From NCBI GenBank assembly GCA_013433145.1, contig CM024178.1:9781260-9845259 (forward strand): 64,000 bases of DNA, read 5' to 3'. The notes under the pieces are model-generated. The model did not search any database, was not told where the DNA came from, and saw only the letters and a list, made by a program, of their open reading frames with translations. This document shows, one piece after another, positions 2,562 through 62,427 of this stretch. Within the stretch, counting starts at the first letter, position 1; each line of letters starts with the position of its first letter. The position numbers and the translations under genes were made by a program. Source of the DNA: Ascaris suum. Lineage: Eukaryota; Nematoda; Chromadorea; Rhabditida; Ascarididae.

Positions 2562-2632
2562 TTTTTAAAGAGATGTGAAATTATAGTTTTTTTCTTTCTC
2601 TACACTTCCCTGTAAGTTACATAATTTTCTTT

Positions 2633-6503
<3,871 letters not shown>

Positions 6504-12566: not shown

Positions 12567-12572
12567 TTTATT
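12567..12572 (-). terminator. Poly(A) signal overlapping the stop codon of the giant gene
   Basis: AATAAA on the minus strand overlaps the TAA stop at 12,571-12,573. A second AATAAA lies about 15 bases further on. This supports the C-terminus and implies a very short 3' untranslated region. Confidence 0.65.
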
Positions 12573-15500
12573 AATGCATGGATTCGTCAAATTCGGCTGT
12601 TTTACTGAGATCACATATAATGCCCCAAATTGGTTTTGTCCCTCGTAGACTACATGCCATTTCTGCGAGTGCTTTTTCGTTCTCGATTTCATTCACTCTT
12701 TCTTCTTTTCTTGTACTCAGTGCGCTCGATGGATATGCTAAAACTGTCGCTGTGGTTATGCGATCCGCAAATACGGTCGATGAAATCGTTGTCGTAAGGC
12801 CGTTTTGATATGCAGATAATCCTGTGGCAGACATGGTAGACGTCGACAGTATTGCCTCTGATCGTGCAGACGTCTTCTCCGTAGACTTTGGGAGTTTCGA
12901 TATCCCTTCTGAAGGAAGCGTCGCGATATGATCTTTGTCTTCCACGTCACGAGTAGTACTTTCTAAGGGTTGACCTGTTTTAGCACTAGACTGAAAGAAC
13001 ATCGTTCGTTGGTGTGTAGTCGAAGACTGAGCAAAGTCGATTAGAGACGACGAGGTCGTCGACCTTTCAAAGGTTGATGACGTGATATCGCGAGTTTTAT
13101 CGGAAGGTCGTTGTGCGCCGGCAACAGATGATTGTGCTGAGGAACTGGAGGTGAGCATTTCGTCCGGATTCGTTACATAAGGCGGTGTTCCTGATGATCT
13201 GAACGTACCTTCTCTAGAAGTTGGGAGAGCTCCTGAGGTGGATGAGGCAGTTAGGTCTAACGAAATGCCTTCAGAAGATGTAGACCTTGGCGTCGAAGTC
13301 ATTAAGGAGGGATGATGACCCTCGTGCGACGGAAGCAGCCAACTGTGGGAGTATGCAGATTTTGTTGACGGACTTGTCACACTCTGCAACGCACCATCCG
13401 GAGAAATTAAATATACTGGTGTCGTGCTCATCAGAAGTGGGAATTCAGTAGCTAAGGGCTCTTTGGTCTCTAGATTTTCATCAAGGGGTTGTGTGTATAT
13501 GGGCACAGCTGCCTCAGATACTATTATCGGCCCATGGTAGGTTTCTGTAACGGCTACAGCTGAAGTTGTCTTTGGCTGCTCTCCAAAATCCACGGTTGTT
13601 TTATTCGTTGTTTGCGATTTTCTCGTAACTGTTGTGAAAGCTGTGCTTGAAACAATTGGCTTTCCCACTGCGTTCTGCTCACCTTGTGCCCAATTTGACA
13701 GATGGTCTTCATTCGGTACTGATATCTTCTTCGCCGATGTAGTCGACTGACTAAAACTTTTCGTTAACTCGGATATGGTGGATATATCACTTTCACTGGC
13801 TGTCTTCATTTCTATTTGCGAAGTCTCACTGGTTTCTGCTGATTCTACATTAGGCCTTGAGCTTATTGTTGAAGAGGATGATTCCAAAGTTGAGCCTTCG
13901 GCAAGTCCAACGTTCGGCGGTCCAACCTTCGTAATGGTGACCGCTACATTTGTACCTCCGCTAGATGTAGAAGTATGCTTCAAAGTTGTCACGCCTTCAG
14001 TAAATGATGCAGCAGTACTTCTACTGGGTATTAAAATTTCCCCGCCGGTCGCACTAGATAATGTTACTTGAATGGAGGAATTGCTTTGATCGGTAGTATT
14101 CTGCCTGCCCTCAGTATTGGTCACTGCAGGCTCCGCTATTGTAATTATTTCCTTAGGTGTTGTTACTGGAAGAAGCATGTCGTCTGGACCTGTCGTGTAG
14201 ATGACAGTCATCTGTCGCGATGAATCAGCTGAAAAAAAAATTATTGATTTGTTTGTTTAAAAAATCTTGGGGACAAATGGATATGAAATAATTACTGTTT
14301 CAGCAAATGTGTAATGGCTCTCAGATTCGACACCTTCAGCATCATAGTCGTCAAACGTTTTCAAAGCCGAAATTCGACAGGATCGATGAAATTCAATTTT
14401 CGAATAAATTGAGCCATAGATATAGCGATTACTTTCCCTTGCATATAAAATTGAAAGGTTATTTAGGCTTTCCGGAACAAAGGATGACGAGGTACTACTT
14501 CAGAGAGTACTTTTGTTGATGAACATTTCAGAGAGTAACTCTATGGATGAAAGCAGCGTACTTCTCTGATGTGAAGTTGCAGCTGATGATTGAGAAATTC
14601 TTTGTGAAGATGATGATATAGCAGAAAGATCTGATGAGGTTTTGGCGAGTATTCCATTGATGTATTCGTTTGACCTCATAGCGTGCACGGCTGTGGATGC
14701 CAGTGATGAAAGCGTGAAAGCGGTGCGTGTAGGATTTTGAGTCTGGGAATGGAACGTGGAAGAAGTATCTGATATTAAATGGGATGAATTGAAGGGCGCC
14801 GCACCCAAGTGTTGACTATTTACCTGTGGGATTATTGCAGCTTTTGGCGTTGAGGTTGTCAAGGGTAAAGGAAAATAGGGAAATGAAGTTTCGTTATGTC
14901 TCGGATTTGCAACTGTGGAGAGTTTTTGATGGAGCTCATTGAAAGTGGGGAAGACGAGAAGGCTTTCCAATGTAACTGATAACGCATCTGAAGGTTCTTT
15001 GCTCGAGAATCTTGCCCTTAAGTTCGGGAAAGCAGTAGCAGCTAAAAAAGTGCTCTCGTGATCGGACGACTCTTTTGGTATCGGCAGAATCCGTGCATTA
15101 TTTGAACTTTCATCCGACCGTAAAATCGTTGGCTGAAGAGAAACGATAGTAGATTTGTGCACCAGTGAAACAGTAGCCGAATGTTCAGTGGGGATAGGGA
15201 AGTAGAGTGCAGAAGGCGTGGGAATCTCAGCTTTCGTTGGCTGAACCGCTGACGGTGACCTTAATGCGGAATCGAAAGTAGCATCAAGGGTCTTCCGTCG
15301 ATCGAAACTTGCTTTAGTGGGAAACCATGCGGAAGGTGCAGTGACAGTTGCTTCATATGGTTGTGGTTGCATTTGTTGCAAAATATTCGTCGGAGATGAC
15401 AGATGTGTGGATGAATGTGAAACCTCGGAAGTGTGCCAAATGGCTGGTAACGTATTGAAAGGCCCATCTTCGATGCCGATTTGGCTTTCTGTACTATCTG

Positions 15501-16670
15501 TGATAGGCCATGCATAAACTGTGGCCAAGGTCGCAGTACTAGGCACGATATCCGCGGCCGCTAATTGTTCTTTTGTGAAGCATGGCGAAGTTTCATTTAC
15601 AGGAACAACATTTATCGGTGATAAGGGTGGAAACATTAACGACGTTTTAGACGAAGTTGTTGACTTTCCTGAAAGAAGAAGGATGCACTCTTTTTGAGTA
15701 TTTATGGGAATTTTTTGCCCTAAAAATTACAGCATTCGCAAATGAGCTGAAGTTACTCAAGACCACTGTAACTTGAAATGTTTTGACAAAAAAAAAGAAC
15801 AGATGGAAGGAGGAGAACGCTGATGGCATCCCTCATAACTGTAATTTCGTGTTTGATTATCATATCACTGGAAGTGCTAAACATTGTGCATGATTCATGC
15901 CAAAGTGGAGCGCAAGCAGCAGTGTAAACCTTTAAAAAAATGTAAATTTTGGAAATACAGCTTCATAGTGGGGGATAATAGCAGCACAAACGCGTATTAC
16001 TTACCTCCCAAATCCATCGTCGACAGCATATCAGGAGGTGACGATACGTTAGGTGTCGAACTTTTCGAACTATTATCAGGTTCTTCAGTCATATGCGAAG
16101 CGCTAGCCTGCTCCGTCAGACTTGATCCGCCTTCTGCATCAGGTATCAGAATCGACGTTGCCAACGTTTCATTAGTGTTATTCGACGATAGACTGCTGAA
16201 TGCAGTGACTGAGGTGGAAGTTGGATTTGTGTTCGATGAGTGGCCTTGCGAATTGCTCACTGAAGAAGAATATGATCGGGTAGGCGAATTTGAGATTGTT
16301 TGTGTCGTTGTTGGTGAGGAAGAAAATGATGAGGAGGTCAAATTCTTCGCAGTAACTGTTTGAATCAGTGTCGGTTTTGACGAAGACTCTTCAGAATTGA
16401 CACTCCCGCGTGGGGTTATGAGAGCAGGTGTTGATGAGTTCTCAGGTGGGCGGCTTGTAGATCCGAGAAGTCCTTCGGTTGTCGACCCAAAGGTAAGCAC
16501 CAATGGCTGGAGATTTTCGAAATCTTCGATTTTTTCACATTCGTGTTTATCACCATCAGAAAGAACAGCAACAGCGATCGTTGAATTGCGCCCCTTCTTA
16601 TCTGTAGCAACCGCCGTTACACAAAAAAATGCTCCCTCGTGTGGTAGTTCCTTTTTCACGATTATCTCCC
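12571..16670 (-). CDS. Giant gene, part 11: mucin-like Ser/Thr-rich C-terminal tail
   Basis: The last three coding exons, 16005-16670, 14511-15668 and 12571-14228, are far longer than all the others. After a short cadherin-like end (to about 16,490) they encode more than 1,100 residues dominated by Ser, Thr, Pro and Ala. Runs such as TSSSFSSSPTTTQTISNSPT and SSSQRISQSSAATSHQRST are typical of heavily O-glycosylated mucin stems. All three joining introns are phase 1, with acceptors TTTTTAG, TTTCAG and TTTTCAG and donors GTAAGT and GTACTC. The final 40 residues become less repetitive (ALAEMACSLRGTKPIWGIIC) and end at TAA. No transmembrane segment or GPI signal was seen, so the tail is probably secreted. 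The introns at 14,229-14,510 and 15,669-16,004 hold nothing recognised. Confidence 0.85.
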
Positions 16671-17566
16671 CTAAAAAAGGTAACATTTTACGCACATTTC
16701 ACATCATGCGTATATGATCATGGACTGTGTACCTTATGCATTTTAAAACTTGACCAACTAGTTACCGATGCAGGATGAAGAGTGTTGTTCAGTGACAATA
16801 AGCCACAATAGCTGCAAGAGACTTCTGGTTCAATTCTTTCTAGTTTTACCTAGTTTTCAGATAACACTTCAACGACAACTCAAAGTGACGAAAACTGTCT
16901 AGAAAGGCGTTTATGGAAGACGCGTTTCAGAAGTGGATGGAAAGGAAGCCTTGAATATGTTGCATTCACTATAGGTCTCGATCTACGATTAATAAAACTT
17001 GAGGGAAGGCAATCTCCGGACAATCTTAAGTGTAACTTCCATTAATAAATTCATCATAAGTGGCTGATCCTGAGGTGCTCTCATAAACTATTCCTGTGTG
17101 CGACTAATACTGTCTCACAGTGAGGAATGGCGGCAATCCTCCTTACAAAACTTCAAGGTCGGGAATGTGAACATTTAAACTGGACGCTTAAAACATGTTG
17201 GTACGAGGACTCAGACTCAGAACATTCAGAACAGTAACAGGTGATCACTTTATTAAAAATTACTCGACAACTTCTAAAGAAACGTTCGAATTCCTCGATA
17301 CCTGATTCAGGATGTATCGAAAAATACTCTGCAGCTTCGTCGTTTGCGTAGAGATTGTAGGTTAACTTCGAATTCGTTGGCGATAGAGCAGAAATTTTTG
17401 CAATAACCGTGCCAATATTTGGCCAATTTTGTCGTACCAAAGGTACTCGATAGAGAGGAAACTCAAATACTGGTGCCAAAAAGTGCTCTGGATTTCCATA
17501 GATCACTTCATACATCAAGTTGTTTTTCGTATCCGATGGGTAGACGTCGACGAAGTGTAATAGCTT
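16491..17566 (-). CDS. Giant gene, part 10: cadherin-like repeat
   Basis: Exon 17302-17566 joins in phase 1 to the start of exon 16005-16670. The joined frame reads PVFEFPLYRVPLVRQNWPNI, then GTVIAKISALSP, LTYNLYANDEAAEYFSIHPE, the exon junction, GEIIVKKELPHEG, FFCVTAVATDKKGRNST. This matches the order of strands in a cadherin repeat: a YxV-type opening, G-T-V-I-A-K, Y-x-L, F-S-I-x-P-E-S-G, and a final A-x-D-K-x-G-R. The acidic calcium-binding motifs are incomplete, so adhesion by calcium cannot be assumed. The repeat links the unnamed extracellular region to the mucin tail. The intron 16,671-17,301 holds nothing recognised. Confidence 0.75.
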
Positions 17567-18368
17567 CTTCAAAAAAAAGCAGTGATATAAGGAGTGAATT
17601 AGTTTTCATTCACCTGCTTCACAGTAAAGCCATTTGGCCAATAGCAGTATCAATATTTCGCCAGTTTTGTCATGCCAAAGGTCTTCGATTGACAACAAAT
17701 TCAGATGTTGCTACCAAATATTAGTGCCTTTTATTTATTTAAGCTTATTACTTACCACTATCACCAGGGCAACAAACATGAACTGCATATTACACAACTC
17801 ATCTTATTATCGAAATCTTAAGCTAAATAATCAGGGGTTAACAGTTAAAGTTGTAGTACTTAGAAGGCTATGAATGATTGCCTGACAGCTCTTTTTGCAA
17901 GCTTTTCTTCGATTTTTATATTTCACGGGACCAGAAAACCTCTGTTCTGCTTCAGTTTCTCTTTGCAACTGTTCCGCTCCCAATTTATTTTCTGATAGAC
18001 TACTGGTGACAGCGGTAAAACGTGCTGAATACTCAGAACTAGTAACAATAGTATTTAAGCTCCGTTTTCTCTCTCTGTAAAAAAGAAATATGTGAAATAC
18101 GTTGGAAACTCATAGGTGACCTTTCACAGATGTATCAATTAATAAAGACTCGCACTAATTTGTGGTACTTTCTGACCCGGCATGAAATATCTTGCAGAAA
18201 CACTAATTATTTATTATTGAAGAAAAAAAACACTTTAAAATATTACCTTTTAATAATCAAATATAGAAAGGACAAGTTTCGCGGAAATTAAATGTGATTT
18301 CATGCGGAAGGCGTTAATTACTTTTCAAACTGACAATAAACTGAAATGTAAGGATTTTTTCTTCTTAC

Positions 18369-18759
18369 CTTTCCATTGTTCGTCATCCAAACGTTATTAG
18401 CATCGATAAGTCTTTGCCTGGTCGTGCCATCGATCACAATTTCATTCACTCGTAGCACATCAAAGTCATCCGGAACGTCACTTGGATATTCGACAGTTCC
18501 ATAAAACGATGCCTCACTTGCACTGGATATGGGTGGTCGAAAGGAGACGATCTGACGTCGAAACGGCTTTCCGTCACTTGAGCCATTCACCTCGTTCATC
18601 TATTTAGCAGAAAGTGATTGCTTCATGTATATGGAAACAACGGACAGTAGAACAAGCGTCTTTTTTGTCCATTCGTAAATGCTAATAGATGCTTCGCTGC
18701 CACATTATATCATGTGATGCATCGGCACTATTCGTAAACTATGCACTTAGATGAAAATC

Positions 18760-18857
<98 letters not shown>

Positions 18858-19727
18858 AACGAGCACTTAGAAAATCGCAGCATTTTTTCTTCATTTAACG
18901 GCAACCACTCTACATGGACCCATTCATAACTCCTTAAATTTGAAGACCGAAAATATCAATAAGCGTATCAAAGGTGATGCAAAAGAAACAGGGAACCTGC
19001 ACAAAAGTTAGTGGAACGGCAGTATGCACAGCAGATGCCTTTACGTCAAAATAATATAAAGAGTTAGGCGATGAGGATAGTGTTACAAGTAATGCATCAG
19101 ATGAAATATGTTGCTGCACAAGAAATATACGCGAGTCTTCCAACGAAGTCAATTTACCGTCCACCGATACGGTAATCATCATATCACGCAGGTACCCATT
19201 CTGAAAGCTTTTGTAATATTCTTGAGGACTACGAATGACTCGTAGGATATGTATGTCGTTTGAACAGTGAGTACGGTACACGCAAAAAAACGAATAGTTG
19301 TAGAAATCGAAAACCTCAACAACGTTTTTGCCGAATTCCATTGTGTTTTATCTCAATAGTTGAATTTTTTCCATCACATCATCTCCGATAAACGAAAAAC
19401 TATGAACGCACATAATTCAGCGACCGTTCTCAAAAATTTTCACTTATCATTTGCTTAGAAAAGAAAATTTCGACGAAATTAACAAATATGTCTGAGAAGA
19501 ATATTTTAGGAACACAACACAACCCCTATAGAAATCGACCAAACACCGTAAAGAAAGTCAACAATTCCTTAGAAACCATTTCCAACATTTGACTAATAGA
19601 CTGAAAAAAATGAATTCCAATAGTTTCAGACTAACATTAGCATTACAAAAGAAATAATAAATTCAATATCCTGTAATGCATATGAGGCTTTTGATACAAA
19701 AACGTCCTTAATATGGGAAATATTGCG

Positions 19728-19813
<86 letters not shown>

Positions 19814-22465
19814 GAGAATTCTCTTAACGGTCATGATTTCTTTCCTGCAAATGAACTAGTTGCAAAGAGAAATTACATAACTAAGACTATCATCGGTAAA
19901 AGATAGCAAATCGGAGAAAGAGGGGGAGGGAGAAAGAACCAGAAACTGATCATTTAATTAGGCAAAGATAAACAAATACATATATGTATACAGTTCACTA
20001 TGATCTCCTCAGCAAAACATCGTTCGATTTTCAGAGGCTGCATGAAATTCTTCCAATATCAAGAGATTTCAAGTGACGTTCAAAAAACTTACTCACGTGA
20101 ATTTTAAGGTAGCAATGAAACAAACCCCTTCTGTCGTTGAAATATTATAGTAAATATTTGTCGTCGTTCCTGATTCAATGCTCTCCAATCGTATTCGTGG
20201 ATCAAATGGAGTTGTATTTCCATTCACCGATATTCCCTCAATCACGTATGATAACGCAACGCCAATATTTTCATTAGAAGATATAAGAAGTCTTGTCTCT
20301 TCAATTTTTATATTTCGTAATTTTGAATACCTGAAACACACAATAATAGAATATAAAAAACATTCATATCATTTACAAATAGTATAAAATGAAATGCCCT
20401 TTCAAAAAATTCATTTCCGACTAATCTTTCCCATTAGATCACTACTTTGAATCATTCCATATCCATCTCCTCTTCTCGATGCCTATGCGATGCCACTTCC
20501 CTTAGCTTTTGCCACTGCTTAGATTTTATTTCATCCCATTATTGCTGCTGGACTGAATGGGGATTGAATGAAATATATTTTAGTACGAACTGCTATCCAA
20601 TATCGTTTGTAATTAATTAAAATGTCGAATGGAAGTAATGTTCAAGAAGTTCTGGAGCCTAACGAAGCCAACACAGCAGGTCACTTACTGCCCATCACAT
20701 ACTCGGTAAAAAGCAAAAGTCATTGAGGAGTCTAAAAACGCATGAAGTTTAAAATGACGCAATATGTTGTACTGCCTTAGATCTAGATCTCTAATCCGAA
20801 AGAATACCTCCAAACGTATGACCTGTAAGCCCTTTTGGAGGAGGCCGTATATAAAGCGACGTCAGAGGTTTAGACGCTTTGAGAAGTGCTAGAGCGCTCT
20901 TAGGTCATCATATGCAGTGCTTTAGAGCAGTACATATGCTAGAAGGGCCGTAGACTATTGGCGTCGTTTTGAATACAATATCTTTATGAAAAAAAAAAAC
21001 TTCAATTAGGATTGGAAGGGTTAGTTTTCTAAAATCGAACATTTGTAAAAATTTCCTACTTACCCGGTATTCATGAGTGCAACCATTGCACTGAAAGGTT
21101 TTTCCGATATATCATAGTTGGTGAAATTCATTTTTGGCGAAATAAAATAATAAATTTTAAGAGATGGTCGAGGTTGAATAGGTACCGAACGAGTTTCGAT
21201 CCGTTGAACGTTTGGTCGATCGTCAACGAAAAATTTCACAATTACTATCGCCTATAAAATGTAAGATGATTTTAAAAAAAGTAACATACGGTAAACTACT
21301 CTTCAAGAATAAGACAATAACATATGATGAACTGTTGCAAATAGTACTTGCTTACGGTAAACTTAATAAAAAATATAGCTGTAAAAATTGCTCCATAAGA
21401 CATATAATCTGTTTGTTATATTCTTTATTAAGTGTTGTCCATTTAGAGTACTGCCGTGCTTCAAGTTTATATGCACACAATAGATCGAATGAAAATAAAT
21501 GAAATTTTTTACTAAAAAAATTGTGGTTATATATGCATTTTGCATTTCCGCTCGATGAGATTTTGTAGCAATCAAACTGGACGATAAGATAAGTTGCACT
21601 CTCTCAAGAAGTATCAGCTAGATGTAGGCTTTTTAATCACAAATAAACCGAGCACCGAACATAGCTTACGTTGTCGTTTTTGTCGTTAATTGCTTGATGC
21701 TTAGATTAATAACCTCGTTTGCAATCGGTCAAGACTTATTAATCGGTCAAGAAATGAACCTGATAGCGTGCAATATTCATGAGGCGAGAACTATGTACTG
21801 GTCGAATCAACCATTGAGCTGTAAACGATGAATTGGCCGGTAAATGTGCATCACCGTCAAGTGAGCGAATTCCCTCAAACGTTAATGGACCAATACGAAA
21901 TTGAATCGGCGTCGTATCTGGTCGCTCCCGAAGCATTTCAAGTGAAACACGAATGTTCAACAAAGGACCCCTCTTAAACGAAAAAATAATTAATATGAGA
22001 TTGAAAGGCCCATTTAAATAAATACAACACCTAAGGAAACAATTTTCTTCCACAATATGAACACAAAAATGGAACTTGTTCAACCTGAATTCCCCTAACA
22101 TTTGATACAAGGAAAAAACTGTGTGTTCCTTCACAAGTAAATCTCCTGGGCCTATAATGACGTGATGATTATGGTGAAATTCGTTAGTGGAATTACGGTG
22201 AAACGTGAAAATTCAACTGGTGAAAACAAGAAAAATTATCAGACAAGAGAGGACAAGCGATCACCTTTTTGTTGTCAATTCGAAGTTTAACAACAATCTC
22301 GTCATTTTCACTTGGTTTTGAAGGTGATATCAGAGTATAACCAATCGCGCAAATGTCCTCGTTATCGTTTGCGGAAGAAAAAGGATACGGTGGAGGAGTG
22401 TTATCGACTGACAACAATCGACCAATGTGATCATGGAGAAGTGCGAATGGATTATCCGCTCCGTA
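18369..22465 (-). CDS. Giant gene, part 9: beta-rich extracellular region
   Basis: Exons are 22265-22465, 21760-21972, 21064-21251, 20097-20330, about 18997-19314 and 18369-18599. The first four junctions are in phase (0, 0, 2). The frame shows YGADNPFALLHDHIG, SANDNEDICAIGYTLISPSK, then a segment with NSSFTAQWLIRPVHSSR and, next exon, FSAMVALMNTGYSKLRN. This looks like consecutive beta-sandwich modules of a surface protein, but I cannot name the family. Exon 18997-19314 contains CSNDIHILRVIRSPQEYY and does not join in phase to exon 20097-20330 (see findings). Exon 18369-18599 ends with a good GTAAGA donor and joins the cadherin repeat in phase 0. The introns hold two long TA repeats. Confidence 0.75.
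18762..18853. repeat. (TA)n microsatellite, about 92 bp
   Basis: Near-perfect TA run in an intron of the giant gene. Confidence 0.97.
19730..19810. repeat. (TA)n microsatellite, about 81 bp
   Basis: Near-perfect TA run in an intron of the giant gene, less than 1 kb from the previous one. Confidence 0.97.
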
Positions 22466-24503
22466 CTGGAAATTGCATGAGATTAACACAACGTTGCATT
22501 CAAAAGTGTGAAAGAGTTTCACTCAAATGACTGGGATAAATAAAACAGTGGAGCGAAAAATTGCGTTGGGGAACTGAGTTTTTCATATTTGAATTGATCC
22601 TAATGAGTGCTTGGGCGTACTCATGCTTCAGAAAAATCAATGCTCAACTATGATCTTAACGCCCTGCATTCGCTGGACAATAAAAAAACGTTTGCTTGGG
22701 TTTGATTCGAGAGTTCGAGATGTTAGAAATAAACAGAATAAGTATAGCAGACCAAATGAAAAAAACAGACAAATAAGTTACAAATACAGACCAAGGACCA
22801 AAAATAACAAATAAGTTAGGGCACAGATCAAGTGTATATACAGCAGATGATACCAAATGAATAAATACAGTTAGGATAGATAAAGCTAATGGATGCCAAA
22901 TGAAATACAATTAGAAATAAATGAAAACACCAAAAAATATCAATAATACAGACCAAAAATACAACAAATAAATACAGCAGACCAAATAAAACCAAAAGTC
23001 GACCACAGATAAACCAGGAGCGTTACATGGGATGAGAGATGGACTACAGAAATGCCATTCATCCTTATAAGCTACATTTCAAAAGAATAAACATGGTCAT
23101 CTGCAGTTTAGTGCATGGAAGGAAATCCTCTCTCTGTATTGTGATGAATCATACCTTCGGCAGGGGCGGCAGGGGAGGTTTTCACGCCCGCAGATCCTCC
23201 CGCGCGGGGGTTCTGCGCTTTAGAAATCCCCCACTGAGACAGAAGATTTTTGAAGAGCGGCTCTCGCGGGGTCTATACGAGGGACCAAAGTTTGGAAGAT
23301 GCCTGCTTTTATTATGAGGCCATCTTCACACTGTCCATGCAACTGTGTCGTACTATTTTTATGCAAAGCTGCAACAGAAGCAATTTTTGATAAATTGCGG
23401 TCTTGGCATAACCATTCGCAATTCATCTGATGTTGATGTTGACACGAAAGTTCAAAAGGTGTGCTTGCGTCTATGTTGGCGTGCATGAGTCGATGTAACC
23501 GCTATTAAGCTTTTTAAAAATTGGTTGTAAACAAAGAAAATTTGCTTTAGGGATGATGCAATAACGACTATTGATAATGTTGCATTTTTTCTGAGTAAGT
23601 ATGCTGCCCTCATGTGGAACAGAGGTGCTGAGGACGTGGGACATTAGCTGAGCGCACTTTTTTTGCCAGGAAAATGATGAAAATTGAAAGCAATACCGAA
23701 TACGAAATTGCCGCCGAAACGCAGAACATTGGAAGTGATAGCTAGAGATGGTACATCGCAACTTAACCTCACTTTTATCACTGTGAAGGATAGTATTGTT
23801 TATTAACTTTTCATGGTGGCAAAACATGATATAGACAGAAATTACACTCGATTACATTTTACGGTCGGAGAAATTCTTCCGACGATAAAGTGTAACCAAC
23901 TCAAATTACGAAAGTTTTGATCCGACAAACTATGATAGATTATGGTGATTTTTATGACTTAGTGTATAGTATAATATTGCTTAAGAAACTTCCGAGGTGT
24001 GGAAGTAGAATGTTATAGAATTTTCGAAATACGGACGAAGCGAAGCAAATCTCAATAGTCTAAAAACACAATCTGATTCCAACACGTACTGATAAGATCG
24101 CGCTTTTAGAAAGCATCTCTCAACGTGATTTTTTCTCAGCATCATTTCTCTCAATTTTTGTACGATTTGATTTCTCTCAATCTCTGCATTTTATTTGTAA
24201 CTTTGTCAAACTCCGATCATTCGTTTGACTGTATCTGGGTGAATATCTTTATGAAATATCGACGCTAAGTCTTCTAGCTTCAACCTCTCTCACTTTCCGC
24301 CGTTTTCTAATTGCGCCCACCATGCTTGGGTATCCACTTCTGCAGTAAATTGGTTCTCTACGAACACTGGATGACGTCCCCTTGCGCCGTACATTGTTTG
24401 AAAACAATGCTGAGCTTCTTCGTGTTCCTCCGACTCTATGGAGAAACTTTTTAAGCCCATGAAAGAGCCGCTTTCTTAACAACCCTCACAGAGATGACGA
24501 AAC
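22466..24503. other. 2.0 kb intron with degenerate repeats and a GC-rich patch
   Basis: The flanking exons join in phase 0, with WAPQ running into YGADNPFALLH, so this is an intron of the giant gene. At 22,720-23,010 it holds a degenerate A-rich repeat built around AAATACAGACCAAA-like units. At 23,155-23,300 it holds a GC-rich patch. Minus-strand open frames at 23,220-23,827 show no recognised motif. Confidence 0.6.
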
Positions 24504-29302: not shown

Positions 29303-30264
29303 CTAAAATACACACAAACTAAATGCAGCGTTATAGTACCCACTCGTTAATCTAGGACTTAATGGATGAACGAGCCAATGAGGGTAAGGATAGTTTATGA
29401 ATGCTCATCAGAACTTTCGTCATATCTAAAGTTCCTTCCGAAGTCACCTGTGGATGAGCCTCTCATAATGGAAATACCTCTTGCCTACGACCGACTTCGA
29501 TGATAAATGAATTCATGTAATCAAGCCTTACTCCATCATTCAATTTTTTTATTCAAAAAATACGTTCAAAGTTTCTAACATAAGTTTTCGACCATAGCAT
29601 TATTTAAGCTGTTTGGATTACAGTAGTGAGTAATCAATGTTTTAAACTTTATTTTATTCTAATTACGTTGAGTATTTATTATAATTAGGTTGAATATTAT
29701 TGAATGAAATTCGCAAGTAGTAAAAAAATTCGCGTACGTATGAAAAGATCAAAGGTTTCTCGAATATAATTATAGCGTTTTTCAAAAAAAAATGCATTTA
29801 ACATAGCAATATTTCATCATCTCACATAGTAAGAATGAACCGTAAAATGGTGGTGGGAAATTTCAACTGATATCTTTTTAGTACTTATCGTCGCCATCAT
29901 TGCGTTTCACCTACAACTAGTATGGCAACAACCTAATTTTCTTTTTGTTTTTCAATTTGTGCATATTGCGTCTTCATGTCTTCTTTCTTTGGGTGCCTGT
30001 AAAAGTGAGTAGGATCTATATGGTTGCCATATTAGAAGCGACTGACTTTAGCAGTCATAATTCTAGTAAAAAAAAATATTCTAGTGAAAAAATAGGGTTC
30101 TGATTTATGAAGTAAGGTCTATTCTGGTGCAAAATAAACGAAAAGATATGTGAAATAAAAGGATCGGCTTGCATTGCATCGTTGCATCGTTGGCCAAATG
30201 CCTTTCATTTACGAAGAAAATAAATTTATAAAGCAACGCAGATAAAAGAGCAAAATTATTTAAC

Positions 30265-48788: not shown

Positions 48789-49231
48789 CTGCAAATGAAA
48801 TATATTTCAAAACGCTTGGTTATATCATTATTATAACAAGCATTCACACTTGATTGATTTCAATGCTGTAATTTCTTTATTTACATGAATAAAAAATGGT
48901 CATTTAGCATTGCGTAATTATAAAAATTCCTCTTCGAGTTTCTCATCCAATATGTTTATGAACCTCTTTTTCTAAGAAGTGCTCCGGTTAGGAAGTGCAA
49001 TTTAGCTACCGGTTTGTACTGTTAAAATTAGCCACACACACGTTTTTAATTCCTTTTATGCAGCGTTGTAGCATCTCATGCACCTCTCTAACTACAAAAT
49101 AGCTCTTTGGAATCCTTTATATTTATTCACAAAAAGTGGCAGAAGAAAATTTCAAAAAAGAGAACAAACATTTGTGAGAAAGACGGACGAACGTAATTTG
49201 TAGATGCCACTAGAAGGAAGTGATCGACTAC

Positions 49232-52200: not shown

Positions 52201-54260
52201 AGAGAGCTTGCAAGATTCTTGCAACGAACCTCTACTAAAAATTTTTGGAAGGATTTCAGGAGATATGACTTTTCTGAACGTTTTTGAATATTATAAAGCA
52301 TATACTCCTAAATCCTTAGCAGTTTTTCATCACCAATTGTTGTCTAAAATCCTGGACGACACGTTTTTCATCGATATGTAGAACTTCCATTTTTCACCTC
52401 AGAAACGTCTTATACAATTAAGTGCTATTTCCTTTATAGAAATGATGCCACATACATCATCCGAATTCCCCCAACGCGAATCCCGTCTTGAGCCTCTTTG
52501 TTACATAATAAGACCAGATTCCTTCGCCGACCATTCTTGATTTCCCAAACTAGCGAACCGAAAATGTACAATTTAAAATACATCCAACGTTGATGGCAGC
52601 GATTGTTAAACGTCTGTTATGCTATAGTGAGTGCTAAAGAAAGCAATTAAACAAAACCGAGCAAACAACATCTAATCATCTCGACATAAATGCATGCACA
52701 TAATTGGGCCGATGATTGTGCAGCGTCGATAGAAAATTGCAAACTTTTAGTAGTATTTGTATCGAGGAGATAGAATCGCTGACATTTTTAGGTCTCTTAA
52801 TCTCGATGTTTCATCAGTTATACTGGAGTTCATCACTGTTTTATTTTAGTGAAAATAATAAAAGGGGAAAAGCGGAAGGAAAGAATAGCCTTTTTCCGCA
52901 GAATTTTATCCTTTTCTCATATCAGCAATTAAAAAACGTTTGCTAGCTAGACAAGTGATAAGTTCGGCAGTGATTCGTCTCCGCCCATCCTCATCGGCTA
53001 GCAAAACAATTCCAGTACAATGTAATATAGAAACGTTGGTGCAAATATTTTCATTTTGCGTACATATGCTTTCAAACCACCTTGAACATTATGGATCCTT
53101 TTCCAATGCAATTGGAATCCAACATGATTTTATGTACATAAATAAGTAGAACTGAAATCTCTTCCTCCTCCTCTCAATTTCCCCTTCAGTGAATCGAGAT
53201 GCTTCAATACCGTGAAAACGCACCAGCGATTTTTAGTGTTCGAATACTGCTCGACTTATCTTAAGTGTTCTTGATCCTATAATCCTTTCATCGTAGTTCA
53301 CTTCCTTCTCAAACTGTTTGCTATTTCAGAATGCCTCCAGCTTTAAAATCAAAGTTCTAATGTAAAAAACATCCTCCCGAAAGGTGATTGTTTTGTTGCG
53401 ATATTCTGTAATAAAAGTTCATAGCGTCCAATTAACGTCGCAAAAATTCAGTTGTTTCACAAACACATCCCATGGATATACACTCTCTGTACTCCTATTG
53501 CGCAATAGAAAGTTGTGCGAGCAATAAATGGTAACAGGTAACTGACAGCCATTTAAGAGGGTTCCGATTAAGCGACAACCGTTATAGTGAGTAGGACAAA
53601 TCATAGCTCTCGTACGAACTACTTCTGCGCTGTAGGTGGCTAGGATAGTTACTACTTAGGTTTTGAGCAATCAGTCAAGCTGTCCTCGAAGCAAGGTGCA
53701 TTCAGCCGTTCTCGCTATTCCAAACAATCATTTTTTCGTTACCCCGTCTCTTTAATTATCACCGACGTTCGTTATTTTAAGCTGCAGAGAGCGAACGACA
53801 GCAGACTCGAAGCTATCTTTGCTGAACAGACAAACTTATGACCGAAATGCAACCTCGTGACCGGAATACAGCCTCACGACAGCAATGCAGTATCACGACC
53901 AAAATACAACATTATGATTAGAATACAACCTTAGAGCGGATTATTCTGCTCTCTCTCCCTCCACTTTTCTGTCCTTTCACATGTTTGCACTTCAAAATAA
54001 ACCATCATTCATGATTGTAGGACTCATTACTAATCCCAACAATTGAAGCAATAAAAAAATTACAAAAACCTCGTTTCAATGATTATGCCCTTTTGCATTT
54101 TATCGTTTCGTACAATGTGACTGATGTTGTAGATCACAAAAATATGCCGACTGGAGATATTATTTCAAAAGAATCCGTTATATAAAATGCAACGAAAGTC
54201 TAAATCAATAATTCCCAAAAAACTTTATATAAATAACAGAGAACATGATCATCAGAGAAC

Positions 54261-54349
<89 letters not shown>

Positions 54350-57300
54350 TAAGGAACATCGATGAACAAAGGCAATAGATCAGTAAATGAGGAGTATAGA
54401 TGCATGACAACGACTTCTATAGTGCGAGGAAATGAAGAAATTGTAATGCGTGTATTGGTGCTTGTTCGAGAAAGCAGTGAAGCTCGTGAGTATCTTTGTA
54501 TATATACATTCGATACAACTCTGCAGATTAAGAATGTGATTAATTAGTGGGGTGCCAATCATGCGTAGTATTTATTTTCAGCAAAAAAATACCTGCGCTC
54601 GATTTTCACTGTATAGCGTTAAACCGTTTTCTTTGTTGTTTATAGTAGTCAGCTTTCTAGCATGGTATTTGAATTTTTCCTGTAAAGCATAAAAAATTTC
54701 AGTCATTCAGACCAAAGCCGAGGAAAAAAAATGCAAATTCCGCACTGCTTGACAGTTATGACGCCTACTAGACCGTCAGCTGTCCAGAAGAGACTCGAGC
54801 GAGGAAGTGAAAGTAAAAGGGGAGAGAGGGGAGAGGAGGTAAAAGTGACTTTGCTGGTGTATCCTGATATTTTTTATTCATTTTGATATCGACATACTTT
54901 GAAAATATGAGATAGTAGTGCCCTCTCAACAGTATTTTCATTAATTAATTCGTTCGACTTGAAGTAACGCTTATGCTGGAAACACAACAAAGATATAACA
55001 AATAAACAAATTTATCCTTCTACACAATTGTATTTGAGCAGTACTAATATTCTCTGAGTAAATTTGGAAAGGAATAAAATGAAATGAATCACTGTGAATG
55101 GATCTTCTTCAACATCTCAGTTTTTTGAAAGTGCTATCTTTTGAACACACAGTATTTAAGCCCTTAAATTAATTAAAATCGTTGCCTTTTGTTTTATGAA
55201 AGTACACTATTGTTTTGCTGACAGTTTTATTTACATAGACTACAAAGATGTCTCATTTTATATAGTCTTCAAAAACAACTGCGAATTATCTGTTAACTTT
55301 ACGGAATTGAACTGAAAATATGCTAATAATTGTAAATTCTTGGATGTAAATGCTTGTTGAACTGAAGATATGCTAATCGTAAATAAATGTAAATGCGAAC
55401 ATAAATGTAGATAAACTGAAAAATAAATATAAATGCAAACTGAAAATCTGTAAGTAGATATAAATGTAAATAAGTAAAATTAGATGCCAATATGTAAATG
55501 AAAAACATTTAGACGCGATCCACTTTCCGCAATCAATGCGAACGAGAGCTCTTTTTTTTGTAGAAAGTAGAAAGTTCTCTTGGAGAATTTCTTCAAAGAT
55601 TTTATTAAGCTGGACATAATTTTCAAAAATGCTGAAATTTAATTTAATTTCTATCCGACGTTAAGTTGAAAACTATTCGCCTAAATTATAAACATTAGCT
55701 CCTTATTTATTTGAGACATATTACTAAGTGTATTATTAAAAGTATGACTTATGACGAAATTATATAGGTATACCACAGGTATATTAGCAACAATTATATT
55801 AACATTGTGCCTATAATTTGTGATCAATAACATAAGGCCACACTGTCGGAAACTTATATTGCTAAATAAATGCAATAGAATATCTAGAAATTGGTGTCCT
55901 ACTTTAAATAAAAAGAAAAAAATTAATGAGAAGGGATTATTTGTATAGCTAGACCAACTGTGTAAATTTGACTTTTTAAATAAAACGCCCGGATAGACCA
56001 TCCTAAGAGTCCACAAGCCTTTTCATCTAAAATATTCATAAGGCAGCACGCACATTCAAATACTGATTTTGACATACTATTTTTCCTTCTCTGTCTTTTC
56101 CCCTTCTCCCCCCCCCCCCCCTCCCCACCTCTTAATAACATTTCAAAGGAAAAATTCAATTTCGTGTAACAATTCCCTCGGCTATTTATTATTTTAAAAA
56201 TTATTCTGTTCAACGTGGCTTGTGAATGCTACGTCCCAGAAGAAATTTATCAACATAATAAACGATACTTCTTTTGAAACAAAACATTCATTTTTGCAGC
56301 AGCAGCAGAAGATCCAGTAGCATGATGTACGGAATGCCCATCACTTAACAGCATTTTATATTCAGTTCCCTATTCCTCTGCTTCCAATCTCCTTTCATCT
56401 CTCTCCTCCCCTCCCCACCCTCCCTCAACCTTCTTTTCTTTTTCCTCATCCCTTCCGCTTCCATTCTTCCTTTCTCCCTCCCTTTCCCTTCCCTTCTTCT
56501 TTGGCAAAAATATTTCGTGACCTAGCAAACAGGTTGCGAATGAATCCAATGACTTTAAGAAATGAATGCATCATAATATTCCATGGAAATTTGTATGTCC
56601 ACTTGGAAACATTTAGAATTGATTTAATGCGTTTGAAAAAAACTGGGATTGCACGACAAAAAATAATGAACAAATACGTGCGTGAATTTGAAAAAGTTCA
56701 ATTGATTTTTGCATCACATGAAAACGAATTATTATTGGGATTGGCAGCTCCAGTAGAGGTTCACAGTCAGAAATGCGATAGTAAAAATGAAAACTGATGG
56801 TCAAAATGCAAATAAGGAAATGAAAAATGGGTGGATTTTATTGACTGCCATCAATAGAAACTATGAGCTAAATAACAATATCATACTACTTGATTTCAGA
56901 GAATATTTCTAACTGGTGGTGATTTTTTTTTGGCAAAACGCCGTTATTGGTGGCCTAAAAATTATAATGTTAGATATCAATCATAAAATCCCTACGTTGA
57001 AGAGTACTTTTTAAAGTAATCCTCTTCTCATAAGAAAAAAAACGTTGAGTTCCTTCTATTATTATTATTGATGAAAATATTATGCATATTGCGGAAAAAA
57101 GTTTTCACTTTTATTTAAAGGTATCTATAGAGTATTGCTTGATGAGTGCGACATGAATTGTGTTGTGTTGACCTTTGAATCATAAATTCGTAACGTAATT
57201 CCTCTTGAGTTCGCCTCGCTAACTACGTGATCCATATGTGGAAACGGTGGACCTTCAATGAGAATACCCTCCTCGCTGCCGGATATATTCACATAGGTTA

Positions 57301-58721
57301 GTTGTGACTGTATCGCTGATGCACTTACTGCAACAAAAAAAAATCTTTAATGCTAAGTTTTAGTTAAACAATTGATCACATATGAGATGTATAAAATGGA
57401 AGCTCTCAGGTGTCATTTGTTCTTTTTGCGCACTTTTCATAACGCTATTATTGTCAACTTGATGGCATTTACAGCCCCCTCCCCCGTTGATTGCGCGAAA
57501 TCTATCAATCGTTCATTACAGCGAAAGCGCATGCAATAAGCTTTCAACCTGGTGCTACTTATGTTTGAATCATTGAACGCTAATAAAAAACACTCATCCT
57601 ACCAAAAAAAAACTGTGACATTAATTCATCTGAAATCCGTTTTGTAGCACTAACATATATGGATGAAATATTTTCAACAGGACAACCGGGTGGCATTTGT
57701 TTCACTGGCCTATTCGACACGATTTTCGTTATTATATATTATGCTGGGAAAAACGTGAACATGATGGCTAATAACTGTGACTTTTTTAATACATACGATA
57801 AAATACTATGAATGCAGGAGGAAATTATATTCTTGCATCCAGTTTTCCCATCACGTAGCCTTCTTTCATTTTTTATTTATCCAGAAACGTATCGAAGAAA
57901 AGTTACAGTGCCTAAAAGAACATAAACATCTGAATTAGGCTTTCAATATTAGTATGATTGAAGGGAAAAAAGTTAAAATAAACGCACCATTATTTAGACG
58001 GAAAATAACACCCTTCCATGTGCCATCATCCAATGCCGATAAAAGAACTGGTTCACCTTTAGTCCCTCCTATATATAGCGAGCCTGAACATAATTCAGAA
58101 AATGTCTTCTATCACATTAAAATACAAGAACAAAATTCTCTTGAAGCTGAATATATGTGGGAGTCTCACATGTGTCATTTGCTCGCAGTATTATATGCCT
58201 ACATTTCTTACAACAAAGAAAGGCATAAGCAATATATTTGTGGGATTCTCGTTGGGAAAAGAAGAGGCCTTCAGTATGGAATTCGTTATAATCAGTCATA
58301 TACTAAGTAAGGAGACTGATGGAAGGGCAAGGAACAGTAAGGGCACTACCCATCAAATCATTTATTTCGTCAACAACAAACCAATCGAGGAATGACGGGA
58401 TGGAGGACTAAGCTCTATATCAATTAAAAATCAGCAGTATATATCAACTTACCAAAAACAATAATCCCAGTATCATTAGTGAATTGTATACTCACTCCAG
58501 GTTCAATAATTACGGAATGACCAATTTCGATGGTAATATTTTCAGTTATACGATATGGTGATCCACTTTTGCTAAAGTGTTGCCGATTCGTCTCTATGAT
58601 ATCACGTTTCCTCCTTCTAGTAACATCCTCAACGACGCTGATCCTCTCAGGACGATGTTTACGATGCTTATGAGCAATAAAATTTGCTCGAGTGATATTC
58701 TTATCATGACATTTTGCCTTA
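49232..58721 (-). CDS. Giant gene, part 2: right-handed beta-helix unit 1
   Basis: Exons are 58453-58721, 57988-58083, 57173-57327, 51698-52024, 51312-51409, 50930-51216, 49892-50196 and 49232-49315, all in phase. After a basic stretch with a furin-type site (TRRRKRD) the unit opens [37 protein letters not shown], then [29 protein letters not shown]. It continues [83 protein letters not shown]. It closes [33 protein letters not shown]. It is organised like unit 2. Exon 51312-51409 inserts a Lys-rich repeat. The last exon end (donor GTAGTC at 49,231) is uncertain because unit 2 starts in phase 2, so a short exon between 49,231 and 48,789 is probably missing. The intron 52,025-57,172 is the longest in the gene. 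Confidence 0.87.
49628..49650. repeat. Poly-G tract, about 20 G
   Basis: Uninterrupted run of about 20 G, one C, then more G, in the intron between exons 49892-50196 and 49232-49315. Confidence 0.92.
53838..53932. repeat. Minisatellite, five 19-bp units
   Basis: Five successive 19-base units, starting ATGACCGAAATGCAACCTC and GTGACCGGAATACAGCCTC and followed by three more diverged copies, with no spacing between them. Confidence 0.88.
54263..54347. repeat. (TA)n microsatellite, about 85 bp
   Basis: Near-perfect TA run in the 5.1 kb intron. Confidence 0.97.
56108..56121. repeat. Poly-C tract
   Basis: Fourteen C in the 5.1 kb intron. Confidence 0.9.
56501..56797 (+). CDS. Candidate intronic ORF on the opposite strand, unrecognised
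   Basis: A 98-codon frame, [20 protein letters not shown] onward, ending [10 protein letters not shown]. It is predicted to be mostly helical and fairly basic, with no recognised motif. It follows a long pyrimidine-rich tract. It may be a nested single-exon gene or chance. The minus strand of the same stretch is also partly open. Confidence 0.2.
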   Translation: MAKIFRDLANRLRMNPMTLRNECIIIFHGNLYVHLETFRIDLMRLKKTGIARQKIMNKYVREFEKVQLIFASHENELLLGLAAPVEVHSQKCDSKNEN

Positions 58722-59683: not shown

Positions 59684-62427
59684 CTGAATGGATGTGCGGT
59701 ACGGTTTGGAAAATTACACGGTTGTACACTTACATCGACAACGGTTAGTGGTTGCCGACTTACAACCGATATCCTTCGCGCCCATATGGGTGTTCGCAGA
59801 ACAAAACTGCCACCACTATTACTGTAGTGGGCCAAACGCCAAATCGAATCATTTAAACATGGTGAATAGACGATTTCTCTGTAAAATCTCAGTTTTCACC
59901 TTATAATGCATCAATCAATAGAGAAAAAAAAGCAACTGAACTTCCCAGGCTATTGAATAAAAGAAAAATGAATGATGTAATCAATGGATAGAGAACATCC
60001 AGCTGTAAATATAAGAGATCCATTACTATATTATTTAGAAGTAGTTTCTGAATCCAACCACTATTATCGTAAAGATTTGCTCCTTTTTCTTTCTCCACCT
60101 TGACGGAATATAGGAATCAAATGTATCATAATTCACCAAAATAACCTCCGGAATTACACTATACCATAGTAAAAATAATAATAGTAAAAATTCAATAGTT
60201 AATTTTAATACTTTCGGTAAATTTGTATGTTTCAAATTTTGTCTCAAGGAAATAGCAATAAATGCTAGCAAGTGCATCTGAAAAAAATGCGTCCTTGATA
60301 AAAATTTCTCTTGCTACGAGCAACGTCAGCCACTGAACCGGAAGCGCAATATTCCTCCTCCTTAATTCAACAAAAAAAGATCCCCTTCGCTGTAATCTAT
60401 GACACAGTATCAATACGTCTGACTAGTGTTACCCTTCTTTTTGACCAGTTCAATGGCGGATTATATCTAACAGTGGGAAAGGCCTCGTTACTTACTGTTT
60501 CGGAATCACGAATCTGGACAAAAGCGCCATTTCGATGCTATGCGGTGTAGATTAAAAAGTGAGTAATTTTCCATCAATGAGAATAGAGATTACTTCAAAT
60601 GTCACCCTTCAATTAGCATCGATTTCTTTCATTCCCAAACATTCTTTTCTATTTTCACGCTTAACTATTAATGTAACCTTCAACGCAGTTAACAATTATT
60701 CCTTCAAATAAGCAAATTTACAGACATAAATATTTCACTCATAAACAACGTCGCTTCATAATCTTTAAATTGCACCGCTAACATTACGGTTGCATCAGGG
60801 ATTCAGACTGCTGAATCTCAGGATTCTGTTGTCTTTTCGAAGTTCCAGCTTTAGGAAAAGAAAATCTCCTGCTAATGCGGCTTTAATATGCACTATGTTC
60901 ACCATTTTAGACGCATGTGCTTCGAAATCATCGGTAGAACTGAGAGGAAGAAAGAAGAAAATTTTCGCCAAAAAAACCTCTCTATTGAATTATATGATCT
61001 TTCTATGTTGATTCTCGCTCTCCCCTCTCACCCCTTTAATCATTGACGAATATAACCTCTAGCGATTTATGTTTCTCAAAATTGCTGAAAAAAACTCATT
61101 GAAAAGTTAGACTGAGGTGGTATCAAGTTAAGCAGTGTTACATAGATCAATTACTAACACATCTTCCGCCCCAGTAAGAGGTACTAAGCAGTCGACGTTC
61201 AACGACTGAATACATCGAGGTCGCGAGAAGGTCAATCGAGTATAGTGTCCTTCGTAAGGTTCTCCTGAAGCAATGATGAGCTTTTAAGTTTTCACATGCT
61301 AAGAAACATGAGTATCCAATGATTCGAGAGGGAGATATCTGTTTAGTTGCTTACCTAGTTTACATGACCAGATATTATACGTTTATTAAAGCTCAAGTGC
61401 ATTCAGCCCTTCCCACATCGCACCTCTTCCCACTAACAATCTCCGTGTGTTTTCAACATGCATTTCGCATAGTTTCTTCAAAAAAATTTTAAAAAAAAAC
61501 CCTTAAATACCAATTCATTAGGCTGCACCTCACTTTGTTCGGAGTTTCTTTTTTTTTTGCCCATTCTACAAACAATGCGTCAAAATTTACAAATATGGGC
61601 AATTAAATTATGCATTCAAAAATCATGATCCTATTATTTTTAACATTCGTTACAGTGCAGAATGTATTAAAAATTTTGTCTTCATAGCTCTATAGTTTTT
61701 ATTTCTCGAAGCATAGTAAATTAAAATATTCAAAGAGATTTTAAAGATGAAACAAAAACTGATCGTAAATGAAATATTTAGCAATAATTCGATCGTAATG
61801 AATCACAAAAGAAGAAATATCGCATATAAAAGTGAAACTAATTTAAGCCTTTGAATAGACTGTATTTCTTACTCATTTTCTTTGTTCAATGATGGAAAGA
61901 CTCAACAATTTTCTCGAATTTTGCTGTCTCATTTCAGCAAACGACTCTCATTTGATTCCCAATTTGGAGATTCTCCAAAGAGTCAAGTGAATCGTAATTA
62001 TTTTTTCACTCAAAAATCTCGAATACATCACTATTTTCATTATTTAATTTTTCATTGTCTTTCACTATTTTTCACTATTAACCTTTTAGCATTCTTATTT
62101 AATAATCAACCCCTCATACTGCCTATTTCCCCACTCACTACGCCTTTAGCCGTGCAATTTTCTTCTTTCTGCAAAAATCTACTGCTGCAAATCAAACGGT
62201 ACTGAAAAATGTTGAGAAAAACTCATCTACGTAGACGGACAAATTACTATTACACTTAAATATTTCAAAAAGTTTTGCTCCCTACCGAGTGAAACCCTTC
62301 TGCCAAATGAACCGAGCAGTTTTATCAACGCGTTTAGACTTCAAGCTCATTGGAAAGTTTTCCGGAATGAATATATGAGCCGGAATGAAATAGATGAGAA
62401 CGATCAAAAAAAAAATGTTGATAACAT
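59684..62427 (-). CDS. Giant gene, part 1: N-terminal exons (signal peptide and Cys-containing domain)
   Basis: Exon 59684-59878 is well supported: TTTTACAG acceptor, 195 bases open, donor CAG/GTATGT. It reads IVYSPCLNDSIWRLAHYSNS, GGSFVLRTPIWARRISVVSR, then VQPCNFPNRTAHPF, and joins exon 58453-58721 in phase 2. Upstream, exon 60809-60939 (CTCTCAG acceptor) reads FEAHASKMVNIVHIKAALAG, DFLFLKLELRKDNRIL. Exon 62286-62427 reads as a signal-peptide-like segment (FFLIVLIYFIPAHIFIPENF) ending in donor GTAGGG. A 28-base exon at 60510-60537 would connect them so that all phases agree (2, 1, 2, 2), but its splice sites are weak. The candidate start ATG at 62,425-62,427 is out of frame with the signal segment by one base in a run of ten T. 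The domain might be CUB-like, but this is not certain. Confidence 0.55.

What the first reader, a model, noticed from the sequence alone, without database searches (positions are those of the whole stretch)
12571..62427. One giant secreted protein joining beta-helix units, tenascin EGFs, an IPT fold, a cadherin-like repeat and a mucin tail
About 50 minus-strand exons over 50 kb can be joined with matching phases into a frame of about 4,030 codons plus an N-terminus. Two right-handed beta-helix units followed by EGF, IPT/TIG, putative-Ig, cadherin-like and mucin regions is an unusual architecture. It looks like a large matrix or epithelial-surface protein, and roughly 1,300 residues in the middle (36.6-18.4 kb) have no family I can name.
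Basis: partly seen in the sequence, partly recalled or inferred. Interest (0 to 1): 0.78.

Follow-up and report, generated by a model that had tools for sequence, protein, structure and literature searches.

The report
Giant worm protein with bacterial-type core
A roundworm gene encodes a protein of about 4,000 amino acids, probably secreted, whose unexplained middle third turns out to match, in order and over more than 1,100 positions, a structural stalk found in giant proteins of bacteria.

Summary
The window lies in an unnamed 278-Mb genome, nematode by its Loa loa relative. Fifty-one minus-strand exons (59,878-12,571) join through 50 GT-AG introns into one open frame of 3,958 codons. Start codon, signal peptide and some exon ends are unresolved.

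A Loa loa protein misnamed 'tenascin' (2,233 aa) is collinear with the window from the second EGF to the conserved C-terminal tail, so EGF-to-tail is one predicted gene there too. The two beta-helix units join upstream through an exon that seems to carry both the end of the helix cap and the first EGF; no second species confirms that junction.

The main result is what the '1,300 residues without a family' are. They match, as one collinear 1,136-column alignment, a module of giant proteins in Verrucomicrobia, Planctomycetes and Cyanobacteria: beta-sandwiches, a Cys-rich helical block, more beta-sandwiches. Shuffled, reversed and FN3-rich tenascin controls do not match. Twenty-two exons carry the nematode copy, so it is old in the animal.

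Best reading: a very long secreted matrix or surface fibre with binding beta-helices, a bacterial-type stalk and a mucin brush. Function is inferred. It fails tests for tenascin, teneurin and Bark/Anakonda, but resembles teneurin in joining EGFs to a bacterial-type scaffold.

The parts
60099..60277 (-). weak candidate first exon (ATG, long hydrophobic stretch, donor phase 2 that fits the next exon); not a typical signal peptide
   Evidence: not supported by homology
59684..59878 (-). first exon kept in the model, Cys-containing, no family
   Evidence: Pfam none at E<=1
58453..58721 (-). exon with a furin-like site (RRRKR, aa 100-104) and the start cap of beta-helix unit 1
49892..58579 (-). beta-helix unit 1 (aa 118-575; exons 58721-58453, 58083-57988, 57327-57173, 52024-51698, 51425-51329 (doubtful), 51211-50930, 50196-49892), ending NNFWG
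   Evidence: Pfam Beta_helix 29.6 bits, cut-off 25.9, scanned without the doubtful exon; model
49010..49732 (-). linker between the two beta-helix units, two small doubtful exons
   Evidence: phase-consistent only
43861..48788 (-). beta-helix unit 2 (aa 611-1026), start cap like unit 1, ending with NNYWG cap
   Evidence: Pfam Beta_helix 26.8 bits; unit 1 versus unit 2 BLASTP E 9e-8 over the start cap
43189..43287 (-). bridging exon: sequence after the helix cap and first half of EGF 1
   Evidence: sequence reading; not confirmed by a second species
40371..43237 (-). five EGF repeats plus a further Cys-rich EGF-like stretch (aa 1044-1248)
39170..40370 (-). IPT/TIG domain (aa 1249-1354)
   Evidence: Pfam TIG 29.4 bits, cut-off 20.9; below cut-off in Loa loa (16.3)
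39077..39169 (-). last EGF (aa 1355-1384)
   Evidence: six Cys
37283..38351 (-). putative-Ig (He_PIG-like) domain (aa 1385-1477)
   Evidence: matches five stretches of bacterial L065, which carries Pfam He_PIG there (45.7 bits in sum; 1 of 126 ORFs); no Pfam He_PIG line in the window itself
17495..36612 (-). bacterial-type module (aa 1506-2752), 22 exons including the start of exon 17566-17302
   Evidence: hhalign one alignment of 1,136 columns, Prob 99.8, E 1.1e-27; HMM 124.8 bits against at most 3.7 in controls
16544..17494 (-). cadherin-like repeat (aa 2753-2858)
   Evidence: Pfam Cadherin 26.1 bits here, cut-off 28.8; 31.3 in Loa loa
12664..16543 (-). mucin-like tail (aa 2859-3928), 33% Ser+Thr
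12571..12663 (-). conserved C-terminal tail with two Cys, then stop
   Evidence: 17 of 30 identical to Loa loa (56.7%), E 2.7e-7; a polyadenylation-like hexamer near 12,314

Best explanation
It is one intact nematode gene for a giant extracellular protein, read from about 60 kb to 12,571. Shown by sequence: order beta-helix unit 1, beta-helix unit 2, five EGFs, IPT/TIG, EGF, He_PIG-like domain, bacterial-type module of about 1,250 residues, cadherin-like repeat, mucin tail, conserved two-Cys tail. Inferred: the protein is secreted, its short front part is cut off at a furin-like RRRKR site, and it works as a very long fibre of an extracellular matrix or outer surface. The beta-helices and EGFs would bind glycans or partner proteins at one end, the module would be a stalk of beta-sandwiches broken by a helical Cys-rich block, and the O-glycosylated mucin with its two-Cys tail would form the hydrated, anchored end. 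The stalk is a module shared with giant bacterial proteins; it was already in the common ancestor of this worm and Loa loa.
For: One open frame through 51 exons, all 50 introns GT-AG. Loa loa protein collinear from EGF 2 to the C-terminal tail, 925 of 2,188 aligned positions identical. Pfam Beta_helix twice, TIG and EGF_TEN above cut-off, Cadherin above cut-off in Loa loa. Bacterial module: of 126 ORFs of at least 600 aa in the fetched bacterial loci 84 were listed with the bait by phmmer at its default threshold, and all 84 match the real L005 module at E<=1e-10. Direct phmmer of the window's protein against these 84: best E 6.4e-23 (small database). HMM from 56 of the 84: window 124.8 bits, Loa loa 89.4; best of 1,002 controls (1,000 shuffles, 2 reversed; 595 reported) 3.7. 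Of 20 vertebrate tenascins 12 were listed, the best at -11.3 bits, and 8 not at all. hhalign: one alignment of 1,136 columns, 16% identity. Unjoined exons alone: 4 of 22 match at E<0.001, in the right order. Models of the Loa loa and bacterial modules show the same order beta, helical, beta. The six most hydrophobic 19-residue windows (mean at most 1.69) are not near the C-terminus.
Against: No transcript. No second species for the beta-helix part: the search with it scored 7,991 candidates and found none at E<=0.01. Loa loa's annotated protein starts at the last Cys of EGF 1, which allows that the helix part is a separate gene. The gene programme, run with higher penalties, splits the stretch. 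No convincing signal peptide. The Loa loa module model has low confidence (mean pLDDT 57.9). 18 of 22 module exons do not match the bacterial profile at E<0.001 on their own, one of them (36,612-36,475) with a best stretch out of order at E 0.15. Nothing tested function, glycosylation or location.
Confidence: 0.68

Rival explanations
1. Two neighbouring genes: a beta-helix gene (about 60-43.9 kb) and an EGF-to-mucin gene (43.3-12.6 kb).
For: Loa loa's annotated protein begins at the last Cys of EGF 1; no relative of the helix part was found.
Against: EGF 1 starts in an exon whose upstream half continues from the second helix cap in phase. The Loa loa start (a Met just before GPDC, inside a domain) looks like a truncated model (inference). 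In all three runs, which favoured exons I trusted, unit 2 and the EGFs stayed in one predicted gene; at the highest penalty unit 1 came off in two pieces.
Confidence: 0.2
2. The module was acquired from bacteria by horizontal transfer early in animal or nematode history, as proposed for teneurins, and fused to EGFs.
For: The 80 loci kept carry bacterial titles (the collection holds only bacteria and archaea); bacterial copies lie in long open frames, up to 4,849 aa in the list, many of them running off the fetched stretch; He_PIG precedes the module in one bacterial protein as in the window. Teneurin precedent: PMC6425310 (passages).
Against: Other animals could not be searched, so direction and date are open; old shared ancestry, or transfer from eukaryote to bacteria, is not excluded.
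Confidence: 0.35
3. The match of the middle part is only generic similarity of tandem Ig-like domains.
For: Foldseek and VIA-align matches of the models are generic beta-sandwich arrays; identity is 16%.
Against: One collinear alignment through 1,136 columns that includes the helical and Cys-rich middle; tenascins and shuffles do not score; 33 columns invariant in Loa loa and 41 bacterial sequences.
Confidence: 0.04
4. A parasite surface or secreted protein used against the host rather than a structural matrix part.
For: A 'tenascin-like' protein is mentioned among Haemonchus secretions bound to goat blood cells (PMC4965049, one passage); its identity with this gene is unknown.
Against: Pfam names only structural domains.
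Confidence: 0.1

Closest known systems
Loa loa 'tenascin' (P0001, A0A1S0UMU7_LOALO)
   Same: Apparent ortholog: same order from EGF 2 to the C-terminal tail, 42% identity over aligned positions
   Different: Annotated protein lacks the beta-helix part; mucin shorter and not matched by tblastn; the name is a misnomer
Giant bacterial proteins carrying the module (e.g. L005 Opitutales, L065 Sedimentisphaerales, L046 Calothrix)
   Same: The whole module in the same order; in L065 also He_PIG in front
   Different: The five bacterial proteins scanned carry CARDB and CarboxypepD_reg, two of them Calx-beta, subtilase and RTX repeats, no EGF, TIG or Beta_helix line; long open frames without introns
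Teneurins
   Same: Teneurin-type EGFs followed by a scaffold of bacterial type (PMC6425310, passages)
   Different: No YD, NHL or Tox-GHH line in Loa loa; different scaffold
Tenascins
   Same: EGF repeats near tenascin EGFs
   Different: No FN3 or fibrinogen line, EGF spacing differs
Bark beetle/Anakonda (Drosophila)
   Same: Large epithelial protein with parallel beta-helix (table passage in PMC8006247); similar cap motifs, from memory only
   Different: Bark has SRCR (same table) and, recalled, a transmembrane segment; neither found here
Fibrocystin/PKHD1 (recalled, no call)
   Same: Combines IPT/TIG with beta-helix repeats in a giant extracellular protein
   Different: Fibrocystin has many TIG and G8 domains; here one TIG and no G8 line in the pieces scanned

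Membership tests
Tenascin | tenascin-type EGF spacing C-x3-C-x5-C-x4-6-C-x-C-x5-G-x2-C | tested here: not met
   0 strict matches, 5 looser ones in aa 1035-1390 (pattern from PMC11401434, passage)
Tenascin | FN3 domains and C-terminal fibrinogen-related domain | tested here: not met
   no such Pfam line in Loa loa at E<=10 or in the window pieces scanned; Loa loa ends in the conserved tail
Teneurin | teneurin-type EGF repeats | tested here: met
Teneurin | NHL propeller, YD repeats, Tox-GHH | tested here: not met
   no Pfam line in P0001 at E<=10
Bark beetle/Anakonda | parallel beta-helix units | tested here: met
   Pfam Beta_helix 29.6 and 26.8 bits, cut-off 25.9
Bark beetle/Anakonda | SRCR domains | tested here: not met
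   none in Pfam scans of the units, the preceding exons and Loa loa; exons upstream of 59.9 kb not seen
Bark beetle/Anakonda | transmembrane anchor near the C-terminus (recalled) | tested here: not met
   none of the six most hydrophobic windows lies near the C-terminus; C-terminus fixed by Loa loa
Bacterial giant-protein module (named here) | collinear homology over the whole module | tested here: met
   hhalign 1,136 columns, E 1.1e-27; HMM 124.8 bits with controls
Nematode apical matrix protein | secretion to, and location in, an apical matrix | not testable with these tools
   signal peptide unresolved; no expression data
Mucin | long Ser/Thr-rich O-glycosylated domain | tested here: inconclusive
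   1,070 aa, 18.3% Ser and 14.4% Thr, only 7.4% Pro; glycosylation not testable

The most novel reading that the evidence does not exclude
A second teneurin-like case: an animal adhesion or matrix protein built by fusing EGFs and beta-helices to a complete stalk taken from a giant bacterial protein, kept with its He_PIG domain in front, then cut by some twenty introns and used by nematodes as the core of a giant surface fibre.
Probability: 0.35. Interest if true: 0.82.

Novelty: new variant of a known kind. Interest (0 to 1): 0.62.

Why it matters
It turns about 1,250 unexplained residues into a defined, searchable module shared by animals and bacteria, corrects a database name (tenascin) that hides the gene, and gives a second candidate, besides teneurin, for animal extracellular scaffolds of bacterial type. 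It also makes a concrete question testable: where nematodes put a fibre of this size and whether free-living species need it.

Tried and rejected
C. elegans B0393.5 was considered as ortholog from memory and dropped: the review calls it a DEX-1 paralog under nidogen proteins (PMC11304992, passage; the other paper lists it as 'unknown function', PMC3597506, passage). Literature on nematode 'tenascin' gave only a passing 'tenascin-like' among Haemonchus secretions (PMC4965049, passage); the main text of the Brugia N-glycoproteome has no 'tenascin' (PMC10187950). The mention in PMC7601233 is a Giardia reference.

Homolog searches: helix part, none of 7,991 candidates at E<=0.01. A search with the conserved Cys block had 21 candidates and none at E<=1, although Loa loa P0001 matches that block well, so these negatives are weak. 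PDB sequence search with unit 2: one chance-level line. PDB search with P0001: 52 lines, teneurins first, nearly all in the EGF stretch, one weak cadherin line. Foldseek and VIA-align hits of the module models are generic Ig-like arrays; VIA-align covers mainly model residues 61-369 and names no family. Pfam on aa 1385-1713 gave only sub-threshold, chance-like CtaG_Cox11 and Peptidase_M42 lines. Rfam at gathering thresholds and a bacterial-code tRNA scan of the window: none.

Signal peptide search in 59.9-64 kb: two hydrophobic ATG candidates, neither convincing. Upstream genome sequence and paralogs in the own genome could not be read: the machine was busy each time.

Dropped before counts: 28 of the 84 bacterial ORFs (not covering the module within my length limits) before the HMM; 15 of those 56 before the structure alignments. 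In the gene model, programme exons such as 40797-41123, 39484-39566, 34532-34673, 34346-34428 and 24294-24433 were dropped because Loa loa has no counterpart, and 56419-56552, 55524-55631, 54593-54608 in the helix part because they scored poorly.
Full report
Source. The best relative of the gene is from Loa loa, which points to a nematode; an ascarid is only a guess from genome size.

Gene model. A splice/coding programme, trained on 17 window ORFs, reads almost the whole minus strand as coding and does not stop at gene ends. Run with higher penalties it splits the stretch into 2, 3 or 6 pieces. From its exons and the Loa loa matches I put together 51 exons from 59,878 to 12,571 that keep one frame of 3,958 codons with a single stop at the end. 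All 50 introns are GT-AG. Without homology the programme scores 401.6 on this strand of the whole window, 18.7 on the other and at most 2.8 on 10 random strands; since it was trained here, this is a check of coherence only.

Relative. A search with 2,920 joined residues returned 21 proteins: one nematode protein, Loa loa P0001, and 20 vertebrate tenascins covering 6-7% of the query at 35-39% identity. P0001 matches window exons one after another from 42,606 to 12,595; three links are weak (E 0.25, 3.7, 6.6) and the mucin is not matched. The global alignment has 925 identical of 2,188 aligned positions; there the mucin is aligned only loosely and the tail not at all, but tblastn aligns the last 30 residues, 17 identical, E 2.7e-7. 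So EGF, TIG, He_PIG-like, module, cadherin-like, mucin and tail are one predicted protein in a second nematode, and the stop at 12,571 is most likely the true end.

Beta-helix part. Cut out as spliced units, aa 118-575 and 611-1034 each pass Pfam's cut-off for Beta_helix (29.6 and 26.8 bits; unit 1 without its doubtful exon). The exon 43,287-43,189 carries the sequence after the second cap and the first half of EGF 1, in phase with its neighbours. This is the argument for one gene. It lacks a second species: P0001 starts at the last Cys of EGF 1, and the search with this part found nothing. The tool also missed P0001, so its negatives weigh little.

The middle. Pfam gives nothing above cut-off in aa 1478-2752 of the window; Loa loa gives a weak CARDB line (18.2 bits, cut-off 22.7). 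I recalled a bacterial family of similar look and used a typed bait to fetch members: 115 stretches, 95 relatives, 80 loci kept, titles mostly Verrucomicrobia, with Planctomycetes, Cyanobacteria and one Bacteroidetes record. From these loci 126 plus-strand ORFs of at least 600 aa were read; phmmer listed 84 with the bait, and all 84 match the real L005 module at E<=1e-10. Compared directly, the window's protein matches the Opitutales protein L005 in two stretches, aa 1508-1934 to 132-546 and 2228-2552 to 829-1155, at nearly the same spacing (whole E 6.4e-23 in this small set). An HMM of 56 modules scores 124.8 bits on the window and 89.4 on Loa loa; the best of 1,002 shuffled or reversed controls scores 3.7. 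Of 20 tenascins, rich in FN3 sandwiches, 12 were listed at -11.3 bits or lower and 8 not at all. hhalign of Loa loa plus window against the bacterial alignment gives one alignment of 1,136 columns, probability 99.8, E 1.1e-27, 16% identity. Four of 22 exons match on their own at E<0.001, in order; the other 18 do not.

Neighbours of the module. In L065 (Sedimentisphaerales), He_PIG-type stretches stand directly before the module and match the window's He_PIG-like domain in five places (45.7 bits in sum), so the order He_PIG then module occurs on both sides; L065 was the only one of 126 ORFs to match that piece. The five bacterial proteins scanned carry CARDB (below cut-off in L065) and CarboxypepD_reg; the two cyanobacterial ones also Calx-beta, subtilase and RTX repeats. 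None of the 126 ORFs matched the window's helix units, EGF/TIG or cadherin pieces at E<=10.

Age. The nematode module is spread over 22 exons and shared with Loa loa, so it predates their split. Direction of any transfer is open, since no other animals could be searched for it. Teneurin is the published precedent for an animal EGF protein with a bacterial-type scaffold (PMC6425310, passages).

Names. The 2024 study of tenascins searched chordates, echinoderms, a hemichordate and a xenacoelomorph, places tenascin's debut in early chordates, and its main text has no 'nematode', 'elegans' or 'Ecdysozoa' (PMC11401434, 12 of 21 passages). The strict tenascin EGF spacing fails here, and no FN3 or fibrinogen line appears. 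I met no paper on this gene in the listings; these show only the top rows (for example 25 of 386 and 25 of 1,080), so this is a limited negative.

Function. Inference only: a furin-like site at aa 100-104, no hydrophobic C-terminal anchor, 54 N-glycosylation motifs in the regions counted and a mucin tail fit a secreted fibre of a surface matrix. The nematode apical matrix review shows that mucin, EGF and ZP proteins build such layers (PMC11304992, passages), but no data place this gene there.

Noticed in passing
123-5073 (minus strand): A separate downstream gene: thyroglobulin type-1 repeat (45.3 bits), TIL domains (40.7 bits, two stretches) and a WAP line below cut-off in a single-exon scan; protease-inhibitor-like.
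   Followed up: partly
4633-4754, 18762-18853, 19730-19810, 54263-54347: Four perfect TA/AT dinucleotide arrays of 40.5 to 61 copies.
   Followed up: no
G000 contig 3, 12,618,076-12,618,165 (L003): The only place outside the window matching the EGF query at E<=0.001 among 9 scored candidates (63% identity); teneurin is a guess.
   Followed up: no
51344-51408: A tandem repeat (period 27) reads in frame as an acidic repeat and was taken as an exon by the model; doubtful.
   Followed up: partly
L005 408-3986 and 40 aligned bacterial loci: Pfam names only the front sandwiches of the bacterial module; its helical Cys-rich block and final sandwiches got no family in L005, L065 and L004, although 76 columns are invariant in 41 sequences.
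   Followed up: partly
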